Below are positions 480 to 47,805 of a stretch of 64,000 nt of DNA, one piece after another. Location of the stretch: positions 493,492-557,491 of the forward strand of contig MU130224.1 in the NCBI GenBank assembly GCA_015039465.1, in the 5' to 3' direction. The DNA is from Phlegmacium glaucopus. Taxonomy: Eukaryota; Basidiomycota; Agaricomycetes; Agaricales; Cortinariaceae. A model generated the notes under the pieces. The model did no database searches and was not told the DNA's origin. It was given only the letters and a program-made list of their open reading frames with translations. Positions within the stretch are counted from its first letter, which is position 1; every line of letters starts with the position of its first letter. The position numbers and the translations under genes are program-made.

Positions 480-1030
480 AAATCATTTTTCCTGATGTAA
501 TGCATTGAAATGGGTGGTAAATGGGCTGGGGTGGTAGTGATGTGTTGAAACAGGTAGCTGATGGGTTGAAACAGGTGGTTAGTGCATTGTAGTAGTTGGT
601 AATGGGTCAAAATGAGCAGTGGTGGGCCAAAACAAGTGGTGGTGGGTTGAAATGGATGGTTGGTGGGCCAAACAAGCAGTGGTGGGTCAAAACAGATGGT
701 TGGTGGGTTGAAATAGGTGGTTGGTGGGTTAAAGTGGTGGTGATGGGTTGAAATGAGTGGTAGTAGGTTGAAATGAGTGGTGATGGGTTGAGATGAGTTG
801 TTAGTGGGTTGAAGCAGGTGGTGATAGGTTAAAATAGGTGATAATGGGTGGTGGGTGGTTGTATTGGGTGGTCAATGGGTCAGAGTGGGTGGCATTGGCT
901 GAAAATGGGTGGTATTTATTGACTAAAAAAAAGGTGATATTGGACAAAAAAAAAGGGGAGGGCCATTGGCTGAAAACAGCAAGTTTTCACTGAAAAATGA
1001 GTGGGGGTGGTGAAAATGGGGGGTAGTAGG
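480..1030. repeat. degenerate GGTGGGTTGAAA minisatellite
   Basis: About 20 imperfect copies of a unit near GGTGGTGGGTTGAAACAGGTGG, period roughly 20-24 bp, run through this stretch. Copies differ by substitutions and small indels, so the array is old. No reading frame persists through it. Confidence 0.75.
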
Positions 1031-14862: not shown

Positions 14863-16336
14863 ATGTTTGGTGCTCGTAGGTCTTTCTATGCTACTCTTGC
14901 TCTTATCAGCACCACCGCTTGGGCTACTCCTTCCTTGTACGTCTATAATCGCAAGACTTTGTGGTGTCTCTCACTGTCATGTCGGTAATCACAGGGATGT
15001 CAACCAACCGCAGGCCGGACAGGCCATCGTTTCAGGCACAGTCTTTGATCGCTACGTTTCCATCTGGTTAGAGAACACCGACTTTAGTAAGGCTGTTGCT
15101 GATCGTGAGCTCTTCTTTGTTACATTGGCCCCAACAATTTTTCATTTCACTGCCCCCCTCTTGCCAGCGAACATCGCGGCTCTGGCCAAAAAAGGGATCC
15201 TCCTGACCAACTATTTTGCCGTAACGCACCCTTCGGAACCTAATTATGTCTCCGTCGTTGGAGGGGAATACTTTGGAATGGACAATGATAACTTGAACAG
15301 CATTCCAGCTAATGTATCCACCGTTGTGGATTTGCTTGAATCCAAAGGTATTAGTTGGGCGGAATATGAGGAAGATATGCCGTCTACTGGTTTCACGGGC
15401 CTCCAATTCCTGAATCCCGTAACTGGTGCAAATGATTACGTTCGAAAACACAAGTAGGTTCGAATTTTATGACTTATGTGACAGGGTAATTTAGCACATC
15501 ATCCTTAGCCCGTTGATTATCTACAACTCCGTATCAGGTAGCCCAACACGCAGTGCGAACATCAAGAACTTTACTTTGTTCCACCAAGACCTTGCTAATG
15601 GGGCGATTCCTCAATGGGTCTTTATTACTCCAAACATGAGTACGTTTTTTTTCTACTTGAATTCCCCTGTCTCTATCTCTGAACCATCCTTGCAGCAAAC
15701 GACGGACATGACACCAGCATCACTGTTGCCGGGACGTTTGCGAAGAACTTCCTTACACCTCTCCTTACAAACACAAACTTCAATAGCGCAAGGACACTCA
15801 TCGTTCTTAGTATGTTTCATCAAAAACCTTTCGATGTGACCGATCTGCACTAACGATTCCTAGCTTTCGATGAAACTGGAACTACCACTGCTCAAAACCG
15901 GGTCGCCGCAATTCTCCTCGGTGGCGCCGTTCCTGCAAGCCTCGTTGGAACCAGCGACACCGCATTCTACGACCACTACTCTGAGATCGCGACTGTGGAA
16001 GCCAACTGGGGTCTGCCTACCCTCGGAAGGTACGACGTCGGCGCCAACGTCTTTTCTTTCGTTGCGCAGCACACAGGGGACGTGGTACGAACCCTGGGAA
16101 GTCCATCACTGTCCCAAACATTCTTAGATTCTTCGTACCCTGGATTGTTCAATTCCAAGACGAAAAGGTCACTCCCAGTTCCGAATACCACTTTGGTAGT
16201 AAACGGAAGGGCAGTGTTACCTCAGATTGTTCAGACCTGGGGATCGGCTGCGTTGCAGGCATGTACGGTCTATAATGGTTCATTAGGAGTTCCAAGTGGA
16301 GCCAATCCTCCCGTTCTACACGCGGGATGCACTTGA
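14863..16336 (+). CDS. secreted acid-phosphatase-type phosphoesterase, copy 1
   Basis: The start at 14863 gives a signal peptide (MFGARRSFYATLALISTTAWA). Exon 1 ends at 14936 and exon 2 begins at 14995 after a 58-nt intron. Later introns follow RKH (about 15454), ITPNM (about 15640) and RTLIVL (about 15811). The protein carries the hallmarks of fungal phosphoesterase-family (PF04185-type) acid phosphatases: WLENTD, THPSEPNY, GGEYFG, NDGHDT, TFDET, FYDHYSEI and TVEANW. By analogy with AcpA-type enzymes the Glu-Asn, the Ser of HPSEPNY and the Asp-Glu of FDE would form the metal site and nucleophile; that mapping is inference. It should hydrolyse phosphate monoesters outside the cell. All junctions keep phase and I see no lesion. 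It is the most divergent of four copies and faces the next one tail to tail. Confidence 0.85.
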
Positions 16337-17397: not shown

Positions 17398-18884
17398 TTA
17401 AGCGCATCCCGCAGGAAGGACGGGGGGATTCACCGCGCTCGGAATCTCCAATGCACCAGTGTACACAGTGCATTTTTGCAATTCTGGACTTCCCCATGTA
17501 TCTACGATACTGTCCAACACATGTCTTCCATTTACGACCAATTTCGTGTTAGGAATTGGAAGTGGCGCAAATTTAACAGTGTTGAATATTCCGGGGTATG
17601 AGCCATTCAAGAAGGTTTGAGCAAGGGGTGGGTTCTTGAGCGTTCGTATTTCGTCGTGGGTGTGTTCGGCCACGAAGGCGAAGACGTTAGCGCCTACATC
17701 GAATCTTCCGAGAGTAGGCAACTTCCAGTTGGCTTCGACGGTGGCTATCTCGGAGTAGTGGGCATAGAAATTGCTGTCGGTGGTTCCGATGAGATGCTTA
17801 GGGACAGCGTTGCCGAGCAGAATGGCAGTAACTCGGTTTTGCTCATCTCCACTTTCGTTCTCATCGAAAGCTAGAGAAAAGGGGGGGTTTGTCAGGTCAG
17901 TGACAATGTCTACAAGAGAGAAGACGAAGACATACTGAGAAGGACGAGTGTCCTTTCGCTGTTGAAATTTGGGTTTTTCAGGAGCGGCGTAAGGAAGTTG
18001 ATCGCAAATGTCGCAGCAAAAGTGACGTTGGTGTCATGACCGTCGTTTACTGTGTGTACAGTTGAGGCACAAACAAGATTTTCGGAAGATACAGAGACTT
18101 ACGCATGTTGGGGGTAATGAACATCCATTGAGGAAGATTGTTATTCGCCAGGTCTTGCTCAAACAATGTGAAATTCTTGATATTCGCACTGCGTTGTGGA
18201 CTATTGGCCACGGAGTCATAGACGATCAAGGGGCTGTGGGCAACGAATCAGAATCTGCCAATGACCACTTAAATGCCGATGGATGTATTAATAACTCACT
18301 TGTGCTTCCGAACATAATCATTCGCTCCAGTTATAGGGTTGAGGAATTGGAAACCCTGGAAACCGGTTGAAGGCATGTCTTCCTGATACTCAGCCCAACT
18401 GATGTCCTTCGATTCAAGCAAATCAACAATGCTGGAGATGTTGGCTGGGATATGGTTCAAGTTGTCGTTTTGCATCCCGAAGTATTCCCCTCCAACTGAG
18501 GCCACATAGTTAGGCTCTGAAGGATGTGTGACCGCAAAGTAGTTCGTCAAAGAGATGCCTTGGGCGGCAAGAGCCTTAATGTTTGCTGAGAAAAAGTAGG
18601 TTGGCACGGTTGAATGCAAGGGTAAGTATAGATGCCGTGGCCGAACTCACGATCAGCTTGAGAGGAAGCAAAGTCGGTGTTTTCCAACCATATGGCAACG
18701 AATCGGTCGAAAACCTTGCCTTTAACCAACTTTTTCTCTGGTTTTTTTCTATCCGTAAGATTCAATATTTACGATGCCAGATAGTCGATGATGAAAAACC
18801 AACTACGCACTCGGAGACAGAACTCAAAGCATTAACACTGCTAAGAGCGAGCAGAGCACACAGCAACCTGCGAACAAGAAACAT
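17398..18884 (-). CDS. secreted acid-phosphatase-type phosphoesterase, copy 2
   Basis: Start MFLVRRLLCALLALSSVNA at 18884 is a clear signal peptide. The intron pattern matches copies 3 and 4: an intron GTGCGT...ACGGATAG after the signal exon, then introns after ADR, RKH, ITPNM and RTLVLL. WLENTDF, THPSEPNY, NDGHDT, AFDEN and TVEANW are all present, and the protein ends NPPVLPAGCA. At the FYDHYSEI motif this copy has Ala in place of Asp (FYAHYSEI); copy 4 has Asn there, so the position is variable. No stop or frameshift was seen. It is closer in sequence to the distant copies 3 and 4 than to its neighbour, copy 1. Confidence 0.83.
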
Positions 18885-27368: not shown

Positions 27369-30300
27369 TTATAGGGCTGCTAGATTTTCCATGTGAATAA
27401 GTGCATCTGGATGTTCTGCATCAAGAAGCTTTCTTATATTTATGACTTGAACCTTTAGCTGCTCTGCTTCATTTAACCTTCCCTGACTATAGTATGTGGC
27501 TGCTAGATTTTCCATGCTTGAGAGGGTGGAGGGGTGCTCTGCACCAAGAAGCTTCTTCCTCATGTTCATGACTTGAACAAGTAGCTGCTCTGCCTCATCC
27601 CACCTTCCCTGATTGTAGTATGTGGCTGCTATATTTGCCATGCTTGAGAGGGTGGATGGATGTTCTGCACCAAGAAGCTTCTTGTTCCTGTCCATGACTT
27701 GAACTGCTAACTCCTCTGCTTCATTCCACCTTCCCTGATTACGGTATGTGGCTGCCATATTTGCCATGCTCAGCAAAGTGGATGGATGTTCTGCACCAAG
27801 AAGCTTCTTCCTCATGTCCATGACTTGAACCTCCAGATGCTCTGCCTCATTCCACCTGCCCTGATTACGGTATGTGGCTGCTAAGTTTGCCATGCTTGAG
27901 AGGGTGTCTGGATGTTCTACACCAAGAAGCTTTTTGTTCATGTCCATGACTTGGACTGCTAGCTGTTCTGCATCATTCCATCTTCCCTGATTGCAGTATG
28001 TAGCTGCTAGATTTGCCATGCTCATAAGGGTGGATGGATGTTCTGCACCAAGAAGCTTCTTCCTCAGGTCCATTACTTGAATTTCTAGCTTCTCTGCCTT
28101 ATTCCACCTTCCCTGATTATGGTATGTGGCTGCTAGGTTTGCCATGCTTGTGAGGGTGTCTGGATGTTCTGCACCAAGAAGCTTCTTCCTCATATCCATA
28201 GCTTGAACAAATAGCTGCTTTGCCTCATTCCACCTTCCCTGATTATAGTATGTGGCTGCCAGATTTGCCATGCTTGAGAGGGTAGAGGGATGTTCTGCAC
28301 CAAGAAGCCTCTTGTTCATGTCCATGACTTGAACAAATAGCTGCTCTGCCTCATTCCACCTTCCTTGATTACGGTATGTAGCTGCTAGATTTGCAATGCT
28401 CATGAGGGTGGATGGATGTTCTGCACCAAGAAGCTTCTTGTTCCTGTCCATGACTTGAACCTCTAGCTGTTCTGCCTCATTCCATCTTCCCTGATTGCGG
28501 TATGTGGCTGCTAGATTTGCCATGCTTGAGAGGGTGGATGGATGTTCTGCACCAAGAAGCTTCTTGTTCATGTCCATGACTTGAATCACTAGTTGTTCTG
28601 CCTCATTCCACCTTCCCTGATTACGATATGTGGCTGCTAGATTTGCCATGCTTGAGAGAGTGTCTTTGTGTTCTGAGCCAAGAAGCTTCTTCCTCATGTC
28701 CATGACTTGAACCTCCAGCTGCTCTGCCTCATTCCATCTTCCCTGATGATGGTATGTGGCTGCTAGATTTGCCATGCTCATCAGAGTGAATGGATGTTCT
28801 GCACCAAGACACTTCTTTCTCATGTCCATGACTTGAAGATCCAGCTCTTCTGAATTCTTCCAATCTCCATTTTCCCTCATTACTAGTGCAAAATTGGTAT
28901 ATTTATCATCATAGTAGTGCTTGATAAGTCCCATCTGGCTTCCATGTAACTCATTTGCCCTTATATGTGGAAGAATCAATCGCCGTAATGCATAATCCTG
29001 AGTTGTAAATCTCTCTGGGATTGCACAGGACAAGATTATGCTTCCCATTTGCCATATTCTTTGCTGGTCAGATTTCAACATTTGTTCCCTACTCCAGCAG
29101 TGCACCAAAGGATGAACAGACAACATTTCAGATGATTGTCCTCTTCTCATTAAGGAGAATGACAGAAGCACACCAATACCTTGCCCAAAGAGGAAGTCAT
29201 CCCAATGACCATCATTGTCCAATACAAGCAAGGTATCATCCAATATGTTGATTGCCTGGGGTAACTTTTCAGCTACCTCATTATCAACAGCATATTTCCT
29301 AGACTCCTCAGCAGCAGATTGGAATATGTCTTTAGAAATATTACTATGATGATAAAAAGCACATATTTGGAGAATCAGAATTGCAGCCTGGGCTGCTTTT
29401 GCATTTCCAGTGTCAGATTGTCCACTAGCTCTCCTTTCTATTTCTTTAAAAGATAAATCCCAAGTCCCATACACTGTTTGATTATAATTGGATGCTCCTG
29501 TGAATGCAGCATCTGACATAAGAGTCTGACGATGTAGGGAGAATTGTCTCAGATATTTGTTGAGATCACATTTCCCAGCTTCAATATAAGCACCAGCATG
29601 ATCAACAGCAAGAGGAATGTAGCCAAGTTCATTGACAATCCTTTTAGCAGCTTGTTGATGCTCAGGTAAGGGATCCAAACAGCTGGACTTGAGAAGTAGA
29701 GCTATAGCATCTGACTCCTCCATCTCATTGATTGCAATTCTGTTCTCAAATGATACAATCCTTCCCATGGATCGGTTTCTGCTAGTAATCAGAATATTAC
29801 CTCTGTTACCTGGAGGAATGAACTTGGCCACCCCCTCTGGAGACAGATCATCAGCATTATCAAACACAATCAACCATTCTTCTTGAATGTGAGATATCCA
29901 CTGGAGGGCAGACTCAACTGAGCCATCTACACCAAAAACTTGTGCAGCAGAAATGGTGGATATCCCCTTGAAGGACATTGTAATACTCTCAAGAGAGGAG
30001 GCATCAATCCAGAACACATGTGAAAAACTAGAGTACAAAATGAATCTGCAGTGTTGTGGATGTAATGTGAAGACACTTACCTGCCAGACCTATCTTCTGT
30101 GAATTTGAGACAGATCTGGGTCTTTCCAATCCCTCCCAATCCCCAGAGGAGACAAGAACGCCTTGACATCAGTTGACTTTTAGTCCGAGGAACAAAAATC
30201 TTCCCAAGTTTGTCAAGTACATCTTTCTGTCCAGTAAAGATTGGACTAGGGTTTGGTTTTTGAGGTACAGGGAACTTTATCTGCCCTTGGCCAGTATTGG

Positions 30301-39040: not shown

Positions 39041-40552
39041 CTAAGCGCATCCCGCAGGAAGGACGGGAGGATTCACCGCGCTCGGAATCTCCAATGCACC
39101 AGTGTACACAGTGCATTTTTGCAGTTCTGGACTTCCCCATGTATCTACGATACTGTCCAACACACATCTTCCATTTACGACCAATTTCGTGTTGGGAATT
39201 GGAAGTGGCGCAAATTTAACAGAGTTGAGCACTCCGGGGTATGAGGCATTCAAAAAGGTTTGATCAAAGGGTGGGTTCTTGAGCGTTCGTATTTCGTCGT
39301 GGGTATGTTCGGCAACGAAGGCGAAGACGTTGGCGCCTACATCGTATCTTCCGAGAGTGGGCAAATTCCAGTTGGCTTCGACGGTGGCTATCTCAGAGTA
39401 GTGGTCGTAGAAGTTGTCGTCGGTGGTTCCGATGAGATGCTTAGGGACAGCGTTACCGAGCAGAAGGGCGCCGACTCGGTTTTGTATTTTAAAGTTTGCG
39501 TTCTCATCGAAAGCTAGAGAAAAAGGGTCGGGTTTGGTCAAGTCAGTTGACAACGTCTACAAGAAAAGAAGACGCAAGACATACTGAGAAGGACGAGTGT
39601 CCTTTCGCTGTTGAAATTTGGGTTTTCCAGGAGAGGTGTGAGGAAGTTCCTCGCAAATGCCCCAGCAACAGTGATGTTGGTGTCATGACCGTCGTTTGCT
39701 GCGTGTACAGTTGAGGCGGAGACCAATATTTTTTCAAAGACACAAGGGACTTACTCATGTTAGGGGTAATGAACATCCATTGAGGAAGCTTGTTATTCGC
39801 CACATCTTCGTAGAACAATGTGAAATTCTTGATATTCGCACGGCGCTGTGGACTGTTGGCTACCGAGTCATACATGATCAAGGGGCTGCGAGTAACAAGT
39901 TAGAATATCCGTTGGGCCAATGACCATGTAAGTGCTGATTATTTATTTAAACACGCACTTGTGCTTCCGAACATAATCATTCGCTCCAGTCGTGGGGTTA
40001 CGGAATTCGAAACCTTCGAAACCGGTTGAGGGCATGTGTTCCTGATACTCACCCCAACTGATGTATTTCGATTCGAGTAAATCAACAATGCTGGAGACGT
40101 TGGCTGGGATATGGTTGTCGTCGTCGTTGTCTATCCCGAAGTATTCCCCTCCAACGGAGGCCACATAGTTAGGCTGTGAAGGATGTGTGACCGAAAAGTA
40201 GTTGTTCAAAGAGAGGCTTTGCGAGGTAAGAGCGTGGAAGTTTGCTGAGAAAAAAATAATTGGCACGGGTTGAATGCAAGAGTAAGTTTAGATGTCGTGG
40301 TCGAACTCACGATCAGCATGAGCAGAATCAAAGTCGGTGTTTTCCAACCAGATGGTAACAAATCGGTCGAAAACCTTGCCTTCAACCCACTTTTCCTCTG
40401 GTTTGTTTCTATTCGTAAGATTCAATTATTTACGATGGGTAGTCGACAACAAAAAAATCATCAACGCACTCCGAGTCGGAGACAGAGTCACTCAAAGCAT
40501 TAACACTGCCAAGAGCGAGCAGAGCACACAGCAATCCGCGACCAGGAAACAT
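39041..40552 (-). CDS. secreted acid-phosphatase-type phosphoesterase, copy 3
   Basis: The start at 40552 gives MFPGRGLLCALLALGSVNA, a signal peptide. The intron layout equals copies 2 and 4, and WLENTDF, THPSQPNY, NDGHDT, AFDENANF, FYDHYSEI and TVEANW are present. THPSEPNY reads THPSQPNY here, a conservative change beside the proposed nucleophile. IQNRVGALLLGNAVPKHLIG follows a slightly longer AFDENANFK segment. The protein ends NPPVLPAGCA. No frame lesion was found. It lies in unit A of the segmental duplication, upstream of copy 4 on the plus map and in the same orientation. Confidence 0.83.
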
Positions 40553-41862: not shown

Positions 41863-43372
41863 CTAAGCGCATCCCGCGGGAAGAACGGGAGGATTCACCG
41901 CGCTCGGAATCTCCAAAGCACCCGTGTACACAGTACATTTTTGCAATGCTGGACTACCCCATGTATGTACAATACTCTCCAACACATGTCTTCCATTTAC
42001 GACCAATTGCGTGTTGGGAATCGGAAGTAGCCCGGGGGTAACAGTGTTGAATATTCCGGGGTATGAGGCATTCAAGAAGGTTTGAGCAAGGGGTGGGTTC
42101 TTGAGCGTTCGTATTTCGTCGTGGGTATGTTGACCCACGAGGGCGAAGACGTTAGCGCCTACATCGTATCTTCCGAGAGTGGGTAAGTCCCAGTTAGCTT
42201 CGACGGTGGCTATCTCAGAGTAGTGGTTGTAGAAGTTGCTGTCGGTGGTTCCGATGAGATGCTTAGGGACAGCGTTGCCGAGCAGAATGGCGCCGACTCG
42301 GTTTTGGTCTTCTGCAGTTTCGTTCTCATCGAAAGCTAGAAGAAAAAAAAGGTTGATTAAGTCAGTTTGACAATGTCAAACAGGAAAGAAGACGAAGAAG
42401 ACATACTGAGAAGGATGAGTGTCCTTTCGCTGTTGAAATTTGGGTTTTTCAGGAGAGGTGTGAGGAAGTTCCTCGCGAATGTCGCAGCAAAAGTGACGTT
42501 GGTATCATGACCGTCGTTTACTGTGTGTACAGTTGAGGCACAGACAAGATTTTCAGAAGACACAGAGACTTACGCATGTTGGGGGTAATGAACATCCATT
42601 GAGGAAGCTTGTTGTGCGCCACATCTTCTTCAAACAATGTGAAATTCTTGATATTCGCAATGCGTTCTGGACTGTTGGTTACGGAGTCATAGATGATCAA
42701 GGGGCTGCGAGTAGCGAGTCAGAATCTCCGTTGGCGAATGACCATTCAAATGGCTGGATTGGTATTAATAACTCACTTGTGTTTCCGAACATAATCATTC
42801 GCTCCAGTGGTGGGGTTGAGGAATTGGAAACCCTGGAAACCGGTTGAGGGCATGTCTTCTTGATATTCACCCCAAGTGATGCATTTCGATTCGAGCAGAT
42901 CAACAATGCTGGAGACGTTGGCTGGGATATTGTTCAAGTTGTCGTTTTGCATCCCGAAGTATTCCCCTCCAACTGAAGCCACATAGTTAGGCTCTGAAGG
43001 ATGTGTGACCGAAAAGTAGTTGTCCAAAGAGATGCCTTGGGCAGCAAGAGCCTTGAAGTTTGCTGAGGAAAAAGTAATTGGAACGGGTTGAATGCAAAGG
43101 TAGGGATAGATAACGTGGTTCGAACTCACGATCAGCAACAGCAGAAGCAAAGTCGGTGTTCTCCAACCAGATGGTAACGAATCGGTCGAAAACTTTGCCT
43201 TTAACCACCTTTTCCTCTGGCTTTTTTTTATCCCTAAGATTCAATGTTTACGATGAGTAGTCGACAACGAAAAAAAACCAACAACGTACTCGGAGACAGA
43301 GACACTCAAACTCAAAGCATTAACAGTGCTAAGAGCGAGCAGAGCACACAGCAACCTGCGACCAGGAAACAT
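41863..43372 (-). CDS. secreted acid-phosphatase-type phosphoesterase, copy 4
   Basis: The start at 43372 gives MFPGRRLLCALLALSTVNA. All family blocks are present: WLENTDF, THPSEPNY, NDGHDT, AFDENETAEDQNR, FYNHYSEI (Asn where copies 1 and 3 have Asp) and TVEANW. Introns match copies 2 and 3. No stop or shift was found. Upstream sequence near 43505-43545 (CACTCTACAAACGTGTTCCAG) resembles the region upstream of copy 2, so promoter parts may be conserved between the two. Together the four copies suggest expansion of phosphate-scavenging capacity, which is inference. Confidence 0.83.
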
Positions 43373-44879: not shown

Positions 44880-47805
44880 TCAAATTAAATCCATACATAA
44901 GAGATTGTTCAACACAGTCTGTACAGCCTCCTCGACCAGTAATTCATGATTGACATAATCAACATGCAAAAAGCGTTTGACATGTCTCATTACATGAGAG
45001 CCTTTGAAAAGATTTGGCATGTCAAAAATCTTTTCAATTGCTTCCTTGACAGAGGCATCACAGGCTGATAGCTGAAAAATGTAGGCAGCTCTTTGTAAGG
45101 AGTTTTTAGCACTTGGTGATTCTTGATGAAGAAAGAAAGACAAGTGGCCAATAATAGCTGCAACTAATAGTAAAGTTAACATTGAGAGTATGGGAAAAAT
45201 GTTGAATGAGATGCATGCCAATTGCACAGTATGTAGCATCTTTTAAGTTGAATTTGGTAGATAGGCCAGAAAGCTTGAAAAAATTGGAAGATGAAATTTA
45301 GCCACTTTTCTGGCAGTGTATTGCCAAAAAGCAAACACTCACAATGGGCAACATAATTTTGGAGACAGAAGCCTGTACAATGGAATTGATAAAAACTGGA
45401 TAAAAAAGTAAGTACAGATATAGGAATAAGGCAGAAAAAAATCACCAAGTGATAGTGTATTATAGAGGATTTTGAAAAAAGGTTAAGAGTAATGATACTT
45501 ACCATCTATGTCCAAATAAGAATAAAATAAGATGACAAAATAATAGAGATTGCTCTGTGTTTGGACTTACCATCTGTCAAAAGAGTAAGCTAGAGTCAAG
45601 GCAGATCAAGATAGTCTTGCACTTACATCCTGTCAAAAGAGTAAGCTAGAGTCAAGGCAGATCAAGATGGTCTTGCACTTACCTCCTGTCAAAAGAGTAA
45701 GCAAGAGTCAAGCCAGATGAAGATGGTCTTGCACTTACATCCTGTCAAAAGAGTAAGCTATAGTCAAGGCAGATCAAGATGGTCTTGCACTTACATACTG
45801 TCAAAAGAGTAAGCTAGAGTCAAGCCAGATCAAGATGGTCTTGCACTTACATACTGTCAAAAGAGTAAGCAAGAGTCAAGGCAGATCAAGATGGTCTTGC
45901 ACTTACATCCTGTCAAAAGAGTAAGCTAGAGTCAAGGCAGATCAAGATGGTCTTGCACTTACCCTCTGTCAAAAGAGTAAGCTAGAGTCAATCCAGATCA
46001 AGATGGCCTTGCACTTACCATCTGTCAAAAGAGTAAGCTACAGTCAAAGCAGATCAAGATCGTCTTGCACTTACATCCTGTCAAAAGAGTAAGCAAGAGC
46101 CAAGGCAGATCAAGATGGTCTTGCACTTGCATCCTGTCAAAGGAATAAGCTAGAGTCAAGGCAGATGAAGATGGTCTTGCACTTACATACTGTCAACAGA
46201 GTAAGCTAGAGTCAAGGCAGATCAAGATGGTCTTGCACTTACATCCTGTCAAAAGAGTAAGCTAGAGTCAAGACAGATCAAGATGGTCTTGCACTTACCC
46301 TCTGTCAAAGAGTAAGCTATAGTCAAGGCAGATCAAGATGGTCTTGCACTTACAAACTGTCCAAAGAGTAAGCTAGACTCAAGCCAGATCAAGATGGTCT
46401 TGCACTTACAATCTGTTTTTAAAAAGACCATTAACTAGCAATCTAACACAATGATCACTCTTTTCCTACACACATGCTGTCATAATATATGTTAATCTCA
46501 ACTGTTGCATGTTAAATGCTAAAGATAACCACTCTACAAAATCAGCTGTTAGTTCCTTCTTTAGACTTATCAAATACATACCACAATTTGTGGAAAATAT
46601 ACCAGAACAGCCACCATGATATATGCCCAACTTCCTTCTTTCCTCTTAAAATATTCCAACCACATTGATTCATTCCCATTTAAAAGTCTAGAAAATATGT
46701 CAAAACAGGAATTTAAAAATATCATGGGTCCCAACCTTTTAACCCCATATTTAATACACATCTCAACATTGTTTTGCTGTGTTGAAAGAAAGAGCTGTTG
46801 TAATTCTTCACTAGATAGTGCAGCTGTTGTTTTTTCAATCAAGTCTCTACAATCAGCTCCAGGCTCATGCATCTCTATAACACAATGAGCCAAATAGTTG
46901 TTAACAGTTATAACACTTACTTCGAAATACAACATATGCTTTTGGTGGATATTTAAACTCTTCAAATCGTTGATGAATACTCTGTTCAAAATCAGTCCAA
47001 GCTTTTTGTGGAGCTTGTTCCATTGCCTCAGATCTGCTGTTACCTTCCTTCATGAGTTGCTTAATTTTAGCAATATCAAGACAGTCAGTCTTGGTCCACA
47101 GAACAATCACTGGCACTTCACAGACTTATCCCTCACAGTAACATATTAATAAGATGAACCACACATACCAAGCCCTGTCCCACATTCATTGAAAAATTTC
47201 TTCTCTGCTGCCGTGATTGGTCGGTCGTCACTCGTTGGAATGCAGTACCTGCCCAAAATATTTTATTTCTGTCAACAAATTTGTTCTCTAAAGGCAAGTA
47301 CTAACACACCAGATCGCGTGAAGTTGCATCTTCACATTTTTTGCCTTTGAACGCTCCATAATGAACTCCTGTACCATCTTCAACTCCTGAGCACCGCCGG
47401 CTTCAAAACCACGGGAATCATGAAAGATAAAACCAGGGTTGCTCTCAAATATCATTTCATTCTTGATATCATGCTCTCCACGCTGTGGTGTGAGGATATT
47501 AATTGAACCAAAACCCAATACGAGTACAGGAACCGCTTACCCCGATTGATGGATTAAGGGCCGAGGACTCGATCTGAGATCATGGACATTGATTGGTATC
47601 TAGCATGAACTTTCACCATATACCTCACCTTTTGACCATTCGGACTGAAGATCATAGGTTCTCCTGTAGTGTTGCAGAGTCTTCGCAGGATTGTTGTCTT
47701 GCCTGCGTTGGCTCGCCCAATCACGAGGATACGGAATCGGGTAAATCTTTCTCTCAGTTGCTGAATCTGGTCAGCAGTGAGTTGGGGTTTCGATGAAGTA
47801 GACAT
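44880..47805 (-). CDS. P-loop GTPase (RGEHDI type) with a tandem intron array
   Basis: The first six exons splice in phase: 47629-47805, 47541-47573, 47310-47482, 47169-47248, 46921-47115 and 46582-46874, giving 317 residues. The G domain has a P-loop GRANAGKT, then RGEHDIKNEMIFESNPGFIF and HDSRGFEAGG (G3), a WYCIPTSDDRPIT block, and LWTKTDCLD (G4, TKxD). It ends in a hydrophobic stretch (YIMVAVLVYFPQIV), probably a membrane segment. This GTPase family is common in Agaricomycetes; its role is unknown. After a donor at 46581 comes the 56-bp intron array (45571-46412). Further C-terminal sequence is visible (LPEKWLNFIFQFFQAFWPIY near 45290-45230, then AIIGHLSFFLHQ to a stop at 44880). However, those blocks are in different frames, and the phase needed after the array (1) does not match the phase before it (0). 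The C-terminal half may be decayed. Confidence 0.7.
45506..46412 (-). repeat. tandem array of 53-nt introns separated by 3-nt micro-exons
   Basis: On the minus strand a 56-bp unit is repeated 15 times between donors at about 46409 and 45570. Each unit is a 53-nt intron starting GTAAGTGCAAG, with a CTTAC branch-like site 12 nt before the acceptor TTTTGACAG, followed by exactly 3 nt and then the next GTAAGT. The period is 56 in all but one unit (55). The 3-nt segments in transcript order are ATT, TTT, AGG, GAT, TAT, GAT, GAT, ATG, AGG, GAT, TAT, TAT, GAT, GAG, GAT and ATG; none is a stop. One unit (donor at 46130) has GC in place of GT. A related intron (45506-45570) follows and also ends ...ATAG, 3 nt (ATG), GTAAGT. 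Confidence 0.9.

What the first reader, a model, noticed from the sequence alone, without database searches (positions are those of the whole stretch)
45506..46412. Fifteen tandem 53-nt introns separated by 3-nt micro-exons in a GTPase gene
Seen directly: on the sense strand of a P-loop GTPase gene, a 56-bp unit is repeated about 15 times, and every unit is a complete intron (GTAAGT donor, CTTAC branch-like site, TTTTGACAG acceptor) followed by exactly 3 nt before the next donor. All 16 triplets are sense codons, and the triplets vary more than the introns do. Known: fungi splice by intron definition, and 53 nt is a usual intron size for basidiomycetes, so each unit could be removed alone. Inference: this is either a machine for adding 0 to about 16 residues by choice of splice sites, or an expanded intron minisatellite tolerated because any donor-acceptor pair restores the same phase. 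I know of no described array of this kind.
Basis: partly seen in the sequence, partly recalled or inferred. Interest (0 to 1): 0.92.

Follow-up and report, generated by a model that had tools for sequence, protein, structure and literature searches.

The report
Fungal genes spliced codon by codon
In a mushroom genome, dozens of related genes carry a stretch written one codon per exon, with almost identical introns between hypervariable single codons, which looks like a way to keep part of a protein extremely changeable without losing the reading frame.

Summary
The window (Phlegmacium/Cortinarius glaucopus) holds a GTPase gene of 28 predicted exons, 18 of them one codon long; 15 tandem 52-53-nt introns separate most of these. 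The listed genome matches form at least 39 such arrays, 38 of them just downstream of the same GTPase exon. Three more subfamilies carry arrays of different introns (73, 67, 56 nt) with the same 3-nt spacing. With exon length left free, 1020 of 1039 and 121 of 122 exons are exactly 3 nt. Stops: 3 in 1141 triplets, about 117 expected. Triplets are near saturation while introns are much more alike; paralogs with 92-97% identical flanks share no codon order. Seven of 15 listed jgi proteins carry a variable insert here with the same residue palette; one deposited P. glaucopus model joins 20 of these codons in order. Best reading: single-codon exons are spliced together and translated as a hypervariable segment. 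Splicing in this species, the diversifying process and the function are unproven. My searches found no published description.

The parts
44880..47805 (-). GTPase gene, 28 predicted exons; 441 residues plus stop when all single-codon exons are included
   Evidence: exon-by-exon join, no internal stop; NCBI relatives P0001-P0006
47629..47805 (-). exon 1, P-loop GRANAGKTT
   Evidence: Pfam Arf 22.3 bits, equal to its cut-off; MMR_HSR1 below its cut-off
47541..47573 (-). exon 2
47310..47482 (-). exon 3
47169..47248 (-). exon 4
46921..47115 (-). exon 5
46736..46874 (-). exon 6
46582..46687 (-). exon 7, ends ..YFPQIV in phase 0
46477..46581 (-). 105-nt intron before the first single-codon exon
   Evidence: GTATGT..GACAG
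46474..46476 (-). single-codon exon CAT
46410..46412 (-). single-codon exon ATT, the first triplet of most arrays parsed (GTT or TTT in some)
45571..46409 (-). array: 15 tandem introns (52-53 nt), each followed by one codon (TTT AGG GAT TAT GAT GAT ATG AGG GAT TAT TAT GAT GAG GAT ATG)
45506..45570 (-). 65-nt intron; most paralogs read have three more single-codon exons (typically TAT TAT CAA) here, apparently lost in the window by an intron-to-intron deletion
   Evidence: by comparison
45503..45505 (-). single-codon exon ATG, ATG in 10 of 12 paralogs compared
45343..45372 (-). 10-codon exon ASVSKIMLPI (paralogs often DSISKIMSPI)
45219..45273 (-). exon LSGLSTKFNLKDATYCAI, followed by a GC donor
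   Evidence: P0006
44880..45163 (-). last exon, hydrophobic VAAIIGHLSFFL and C-terminal part, stop TGA
   Evidence: mean dN over mean dS 0.51 for the three C-terminal exons, 190 pairs of 20 loci

Best explanation
This is a family of GTPase genes in which a protein segment between two hydrophobic stretches is encoded one codon per exon. Each codon sits alone between two copies of a short, strong, nearly identical intron (53-nt type here; 73-, 67- or 56-nt types in other subfamilies). The introns can be removed one by one, leaving a run of about 16 to 100 codons that is translated as a hypervariable segment (supported by sequence and by relatives' proteins; not shown by reads of this species). 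Because every exon is a whole phase-0 codon, gain, loss or exchange of units and indels in introns keep the frame, so the segment can change length and sequence fast (inference). Introns are kept alike while codons are diversified, most likely by recombination within introns plus selection for diversity, or by mutation aimed at the codons (inference). The likely use is a variable recognition surface, for example in self/nonself recognition (speculation).
For: (1) Parsed with exon length free (1-12 nt), 1020 of 1039 exons in 24 loci of the window's subfamily are 3 nt while introns range 43-114 nt; 121 of 122 in 5 loci of three other subfamilies. (2) Stops: 2 of 1020 vs 109.9 expected from position-wise base frequencies (TAA 0 vs 28.1, TGA 0 vs 11.3, TAG 2 vs 70.5); 1 of 121 vs 6.9. 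(3) 38 of 39 arrays merged from the listed matches lie 153-371 nt downstream of the family's exon on the same strand. (4) Three other intron repeats, different in sequence by eye, with the same 3-nt spacing. (5) Proteins on short jgi contigs: P0121 (295 aa, 1373 bases) and P0122 (285 aa, 955 bases), the closest to the window's subfamily, read YFPHL|Y|V|variable|E|H|H|D|L|NLFSNAMS and YFPNV|W|I|variable|P|M|Y|D|L|ISLSKIMS, the predicted layout, without a break where P. glaucopus has introns. Of 15 listed jgi proteins, 7 carry an insert there, each richer in the triplets' residues than every same-length window before it (insert ends set by eye). (6) NCBI model P0006 holds KIEEEEKYDWEYSLREYYQV, which are 20 of L030's 24 single-codon exons in order; its last 19 are a full subsequence of L030's peptide, and at most 14 match any of 23 other loci. 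(7) C-terminal exons: mean dN over mean dS 0.51. (8) Heterozygosity .68/.71/.63 at triplets vs .185 mid-intron; second subfamily .70/.72/.53 vs .013, 30 of 45 introns identical. Codon order of close paralogs is no more alike than shuffled (4 pairs, flanks 92-97% identical).
Against: No RNA reads of this species were seen. That the short jgi contigs are cDNA is inferred from unbroken proteins across known intron sites; their DNA could not be fetched, and relatives whose segment is an ordinary exon are not excluded. P0006 is a fused model of two neighbouring genes, omits 4 of L030's exons and all of L031's array, leaves one residue (E before K) unexplained, and is listed on a contig of 868108 bases where contig C237 here has 864199. 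By their tails, 3 of 15 jgi proteins (P0003, P0031, P0045) seem to read into the first intron and stop. Some arrays are irregular (exons of 1, 2, 4 or 6 nt in L030, L038, L042, L044, L045, L047-L049, L054; stops in L041, L049, L051; foreign DNA in L037). TAG avoidance could partly reflect avoiding a second acceptor; TAA and TGA avoidance cannot. Units with identical introns do share codons somewhat more than background (26% vs 10% within, 12% vs 6% between arrays), so codons are not wholly uncoupled. The recognition role has no direct evidence.
Confidence: 0.85

Rival explanations
1. The array is spliced out whole as one large intron; the triplets are never translated (the layout of the NCBI model for L031).
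For: P0006 skips the L031 array, FPQIV joined to DSISKIMSPI.
Against: 3 stops in 1141 triplets vs about 117 expected, exon length held at 3; inserts in relatives' proteins; the same model includes L030's triplets.
Confidence: 0.05
2. Regulated choice of donors and acceptors makes many isoforms per gene (0 to n residues).
For: Nearly all exons are phase 0, so any subset keeps the frame; P0006 omits 4 of L030's exons; by their tails jgi proteins P0003, P0031, P0045 seem to read into the first intron, P0015 and P0058 into a later one.
Against: No isoform data; mostly near-consensus splice sites suggest constitutive splicing; diversity among genes is already large without it.
Confidence: 0.2
3. 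Introner-like invasion: a mobile intron inserted between the codons of an ordinary exon, so codons differ because they were an ordinary coding sequence.
For: Introns alike, codons not; adjacent units hardly more alike in codon than distant ones.
Against: Insertion after every codon in dozens of genes is implausible; paralogs with 92-97% identical flanks share no codon order beyond shuffled controls (4 pairs); unit numbers differ; among the listed matches (list truncated) only the detached half L036 lacks a family exon just upstream.
Confidence: 0.1
4. Neutral intron minisatellite in decayed genes.
For: Several loci carry stops or irregular exons.
Against: Stop avoidance, exon length, purifying selection on the C-terminal exons, 38 of 39 arrays in one place of one family.
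Confidence: 0.03

Closest known systems
Schistosome micro-exon genes (MEGs)
   Same: Much of the coding region in very small symmetrical exons, thought to allow protein variation (PMC4350168, passages).
   Different: Here nearly every exon of the segment is one codon, the introns are near-identical tandem copies, the codons are hypervariable between paralogs, and the host is a mushroom GTPase family.
Ultra-small exons in plants and fungi (1-nt exons of APC11, VPS55, CYP621A)
   Same: Exons of 1-3 nt can be spliced accurately (PMC8831610, PMC12940212, passages).
   Different: The passages describe isolated, conserved exons; here tens to about a hundred in a row, hypervariable.
Introners / introner-like elements
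   Same: Many near-identical introns in one genome (PMC9860276 passages; PMC4457414 listing).
   Different: Introners insert into many genes; here the listed copies form arrays in one gene family, one codon apart, with at least four different intron sequences.
Recursive splicing (recalled, no call)
   Same: Each splice can recreate a donor for the next step.
   Different: A codon is kept at each step instead of none.
Stwintrons of Hypoxylaceae
   Same: Unusual fungal introns present in many similar copies (PMC8469720, PMC9024468, listing).
   Different: Stwintrons are nested: one intron interrupts another.
Hypervariable repeat families: fungal NLR repeats (recalled), sea urchin 185/333 (PMC1988830, listing)
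   Same: Large families with fast-changing repeats linked to immunity or recognition.
   Different: Their variable units are, as far as I recall, exonic elements of many codons.

Membership tests
Micro-exon genes (MEG-like organisation) | a coding segment in tiny exons of whole codons | tested here: met
   1020 of 1039 and 121 of 122 exons are 3 nt
Micro-exon genes (MEG-like organisation) | homology to schistosome MEGs, secreted products | not tested
   no MEG sequence was compared and secretion was not examined; the gene is a fungal P-loop GTPase
Micro-exon genes (MEG-like organisation) | variants made by alternative splicing | not testable with these tools
   no reads; only hints
Introners / introner-like elements | near-identical introns spread over unrelated genes | tested here: not met
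   38 of 39 arrays from the listed matches are in one gene family; the list was truncated
Introners / introner-like elements | target-site duplication or terminal inverted repeats | tested here: inconclusive
   neighbouring triplets agree in 97 of 866 cases vs 85 by shuffling, so no 3-nt duplication; longer duplications and inverted repeats not tested
Coding minisatellite | tandem copies by unequal exchange, neighbours alike | tested here: inconclusive
   tandem units yes; triplets of neighbours hardly more alike than shuffled, 21 of 300 shuffles reach the observed count
P-loop GTPase of Agaricomycetes | P-loop and homology over the G domain | tested here: met
   GRANAGKTT; 1766 homologs at E <= 0.001, best 120 seen; Pfam hits weak; no PDB relative by sequence
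Fungal recognition receptors | experimental role in incompatibility or immunity | not testable with these tools
   only diversity was measured

The most novel reading that the evidence does not exclude
A codon-cassette diversity generator: each codon is an independently exchangeable, possibly hypermutable cassette held between identical intron arms, and splicing fuses them into a variable segment, giving a fungus a repertoire of fast-changing recognition proteins, with a process that acts on the codons and spares or restores the introns.
Probability: 0.35. Interest if true: 0.98.

Novelty: categorically new. Interest (0 to 1): 0.95.

Why it matters
It would show that a eukaryotic gene can be built one codon per exon over up to about 100 codons, a test of how small and how many exons the spliceosome handles. 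It would be a new way of making protein diversity, with introns as frame-proof spacers, and it offers a natural experiment on mutation and recombination: codons and their own flanking introns compared more than a thousand times in one genome. It would also mean that standard annotation misses the variable part of a large fungal gene family.

Tried and rejected
Whole-array skipping, neutral minisatellite and introner invasion were considered and are given as rivals.

A first parse (636 of 639 exons of 3 nt) was replaced, and a first site finder for the other subfamilies, which missed many units. The reversed units of L052 were left out of all triplet counts. L037 and L044 were left (they supply 7 of its 19 exons that are not 3 nt) and out; searches also drop the last five triplets or units of each array of the window's subfamily. 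One search dropped L036 and L050 (short) and two loci in which the C-terminal exons were not found.

(631 units): most intron sites show no association with the neighbouring triplets inside arrays; a few do, mainly next to the splice sites (z 3.0-4.0 at positions 3, 7, 50, 51). Of 12 pairs of intron sites tested, 6 (all at most 3 bases apart) are linked and the two distant ones are not. This fits frequent short exchanges or recurrent mutation and does not decide between them.

Structure prediction on 8 sequences gave mean pLDDT 50 and was not used. The pattern search (spacing guessed too short) found nothing useful. PDB sequence search: no match.

Literature: ten searches, of which I saw listings and the starts of abstracts; none listed a paper that by title or abstract start describes tandem single-codon exons. 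Four papers were looked at in passages only. The library holds open-licence PMC papers, so subscription papers and preprints were not covered.

Full report
WHAT IS THERE. On the minus strand of the window, 46412-45506, fifteen tandem introns (fourteen of 53 nt, one of 52) are each followed by exactly three bases. The array lies inside a GTPase gene whose exons can be joined from 47805 to 44880 into one open frame of 441 residues plus stop; 18 of its 28 exons are a single codon. No reading frame runs through the array unspliced.

WHOSE GENOME. The closest proteins are annotated as Phlegmacium glaucopus (older name Cortinarius glaucopus, recalled); one of them, P0004, lies on a contig of 880866 bases, the length of contig C62 of the window's genome. 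The genome has 60.5 Mb in 259 contigs.

A GENOME-WIDE FAMILY. A DNA search of the genome with the array gave 173 matches (40 of 47 candidates scored, list truncated). The listed ones, merged by hand and checked by script, form 39 arrays, about 88.8 kb or 1585 units; 38 of 39 start 153-371 nt downstream of a copy of the window gene's exon 6-7 region on the same strand. This is a lower bound. The exception, L036, lies some 8 kb beyond L037 and looks like the second half of the same gene after an insertion. I fetched 24 of the 39 arrays.

OTHER SUBFAMILIES, OTHER INTRONS. A search with a more distant relative found further copies. Six were fetched. L051 and L053 carry 22 and 23 copies of a different 73-nt intron; L054 has mainly a 67-nt intron; L055 and L056 mainly another 56-nt intron; the units again keep 3 nt, with one 4-nt exception in L054. 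L052 has the 73-nt type but is probably misassembled. 'Subfamily' here means similarity, not a tree, and the introns were judged different by eye.

EXONS HELD AT ONE CODON. A parser that scores donors and acceptors and lets exons be 1-12 nt found 1020 of 1039 exons of exactly 3 nt in 24 loci, with introns from 43 to 114 nt, and 121 of 122 in five loci of the other subfamilies. The exceptions are partly parsing at array ends or in the foreign DNA of L037, partly probable damage.

STOP CODONS ARE AVOIDED. Under independence of the three positions, 109.9 stop codons are expected among the 1020 triplets; 2 occur, both TAG. TAG might be avoided because it would add a second acceptor; TAA and TGA have no such reason and occur 0 times against 39.4. 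In the other subfamilies 1 (TGA) of 121 against 6.9. The C-terminal exons after the array read through in frame in 18 of 20 loci examined; mean dN is 0.155 and mean dS 0.303 over 190 pairs of 20 loci (4 of 24 loci not usable).

PROTEINS OF RELATIVES. Among the listed homologs (best 120 of 1766) 15 are jgi proteins of unnamed origin (read). Seven (P0011, P0015, P0024, P0058, P0113, P0121, P0122) continue after the FPQIV/WFPH end of exon 7 with a low-complexity stretch; in each it is richer in the triplets' residues than all same-length windows before it (background recalled, insert ends set by eye). P0121 and P0122 are closest to the window's subfamily (63% and 57% to P0006) and show the predicted order: exon 7 end, one residue, V or I, a variable stretch, a short tail, then the SISKIMSPI-like exon. 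Three (P0003, P0031, P0045) seem by their tails to read into the first intron, P0046 is unclear, three (P0005, P0007, P0051) end earlier, and P0123, on a 9592-base contig, reads through an intron and is probably genomic. P0015 and P0058 end in VS.., which fits reading into a GTNAGT donor. That the short contigs are cDNA is inferred.

A DEPOSITED MODEL THAT USES THE CODONS. NCBI protein P0006 is a fused model: exons of L030, then KIEEEEKYDWEYSLREYYQV, then exons of L031. Those 20 residues are, in order, L030's single-codon exons with 4 of 24 left out; the 19 after K are a full subsequence of L030's peptide, and no other of 23 loci gives more than 14. One E before them is unexplained, and the same model leaves out all of L031's array. 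The contig length given for P0006 (868108) differs from that of C237 here (864199). Whether RNA supported the model cannot be seen here.

CODONS VARY MUCH MORE THAN INTRONS. In 660 units with 53-nt introns heterozygosity is .68.71.63 at the codon positions and .185 in the middle of the intron; 24 units with the very same intron carry 10 different codons; identical-intron pairs share the codon in 7 of 27 cases within arrays (background 10%) and 32 of 269 between arrays (background 6%), so some coupling remains. In L051 and L053 30 of 45 introns are identical and carry 18 different codons; heterozygosity .013 against .70.72.53. In L054, 16 of 22 introns are identical and its codons are less varied (.52.57, 0). 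Neighbouring units are hardly more alike in codon than others: 97 of 866 against 85 by shuffling (21 of 300 shuffles reach it) in the window's subfamily, 17 of 116 against 13 (45 of 300) in the others. Close paralogs, 92-95% identical over 600 nt before the array (L027, L043, L045) or 97% over 341 nt (L051, L053), have codon orders no more alike than shuffled ones in all 4 pairs tested. Window and L044 match over 590 nt with 16 mismatches in 30 codon bases and 21 in 560 others.

A CONTROL IN THE SAME GENES. Four single-codon exons follow the array in most paralogs. In the 12 of 24 loci where they could be compared, two (mostly TAT and ATG) have heterozygosity 0-.17 while their introns differ by .13-.15; the other two are intermediate (.30-.55). 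So small size alone does not make an exon hypervariable.

HOW IT MAY WORK. Shown: the layout, the exon length, stop avoidance, the contrast of codon and intron diversity, inserts in relatives' proteins. Inferred: introns are removed one by one, as expected for short fungal introns (recalled), and the codons are fused into a segment. Inferred: whole-codon exons make any gain, loss or exchange of units harmless to the frame, so the segment can evolve fast. Open: why introns stay alike while codons are saturated. Selection for codon diversity with frequent exchange inside introns, or mutation aimed at the codons, would both fit; one search does not separate them. A recognition role is a guess from the pattern.

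NOVELTY. Ten literature searches listed no description (listings and abstract starts). The nearest are schistosome micro-exon genes (PMC4350168, passages), isolated 1-nt exons (PMC8831610, PMC12940212, passages), and introners (PMC9860276, passages). None of these, in what I saw, has tandem near-identical introns with one variable codon each.

Noticed in passing
L052 (G000:C249:8650-11800), about 440-2560: 22 units of the 73-nt array are present reversed but not complemented, and a run of 26 A follows; read backwards they are intact units. Most likely an assembly or gap-filling artefact.
   Followed up: partly
L037 and L036 (C237:494400-501300 and 485500-492500): Array broken off by unrelated DNA in L037 and resumed about 8 kb away in L036: probably one gene split by an insertion.
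   Followed up: partly
L044 (C220:187600-196200): Array interrupted by about 1.6 kb, with a second family exon in opposite orientation nearby (C220:192263-192556 +).
   Followed up: no
NCBI protein P0006 (BYT27DRAFT_7202008): Fused gene model of two neighbouring family members (L030 and L031), annotated as one protein.
   Followed up: yes
window 27408-28837 (-): 126-bp tandem repeat, 11.4 copies, inside a 906-codon open frame that looks like an NTPase with TPR-type repeats (recalled label, not searched).
   Followed up: no
window 15854-16336 (+), 17398-18033 (-), 39041-39556 (-), 41863-42375 (-): Four open frames sharing long motifs (SEIATVEANW, DVGANVF): copies of one gene, phosphoesterase-like by recall.
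   Followed up: no
window 533-849: Degenerate 20-bp minisatellite.
   Followed up: no
subfamilies 2-4 vs 1: The third base of the triplets is A or T in all but one of 121 in subfamilies 2-4, but G, T or A in the window's subfamily; C is third in 2 of 1020 and 1 of 121. Unexplained beyond the splice-site context.
   Followed up: no
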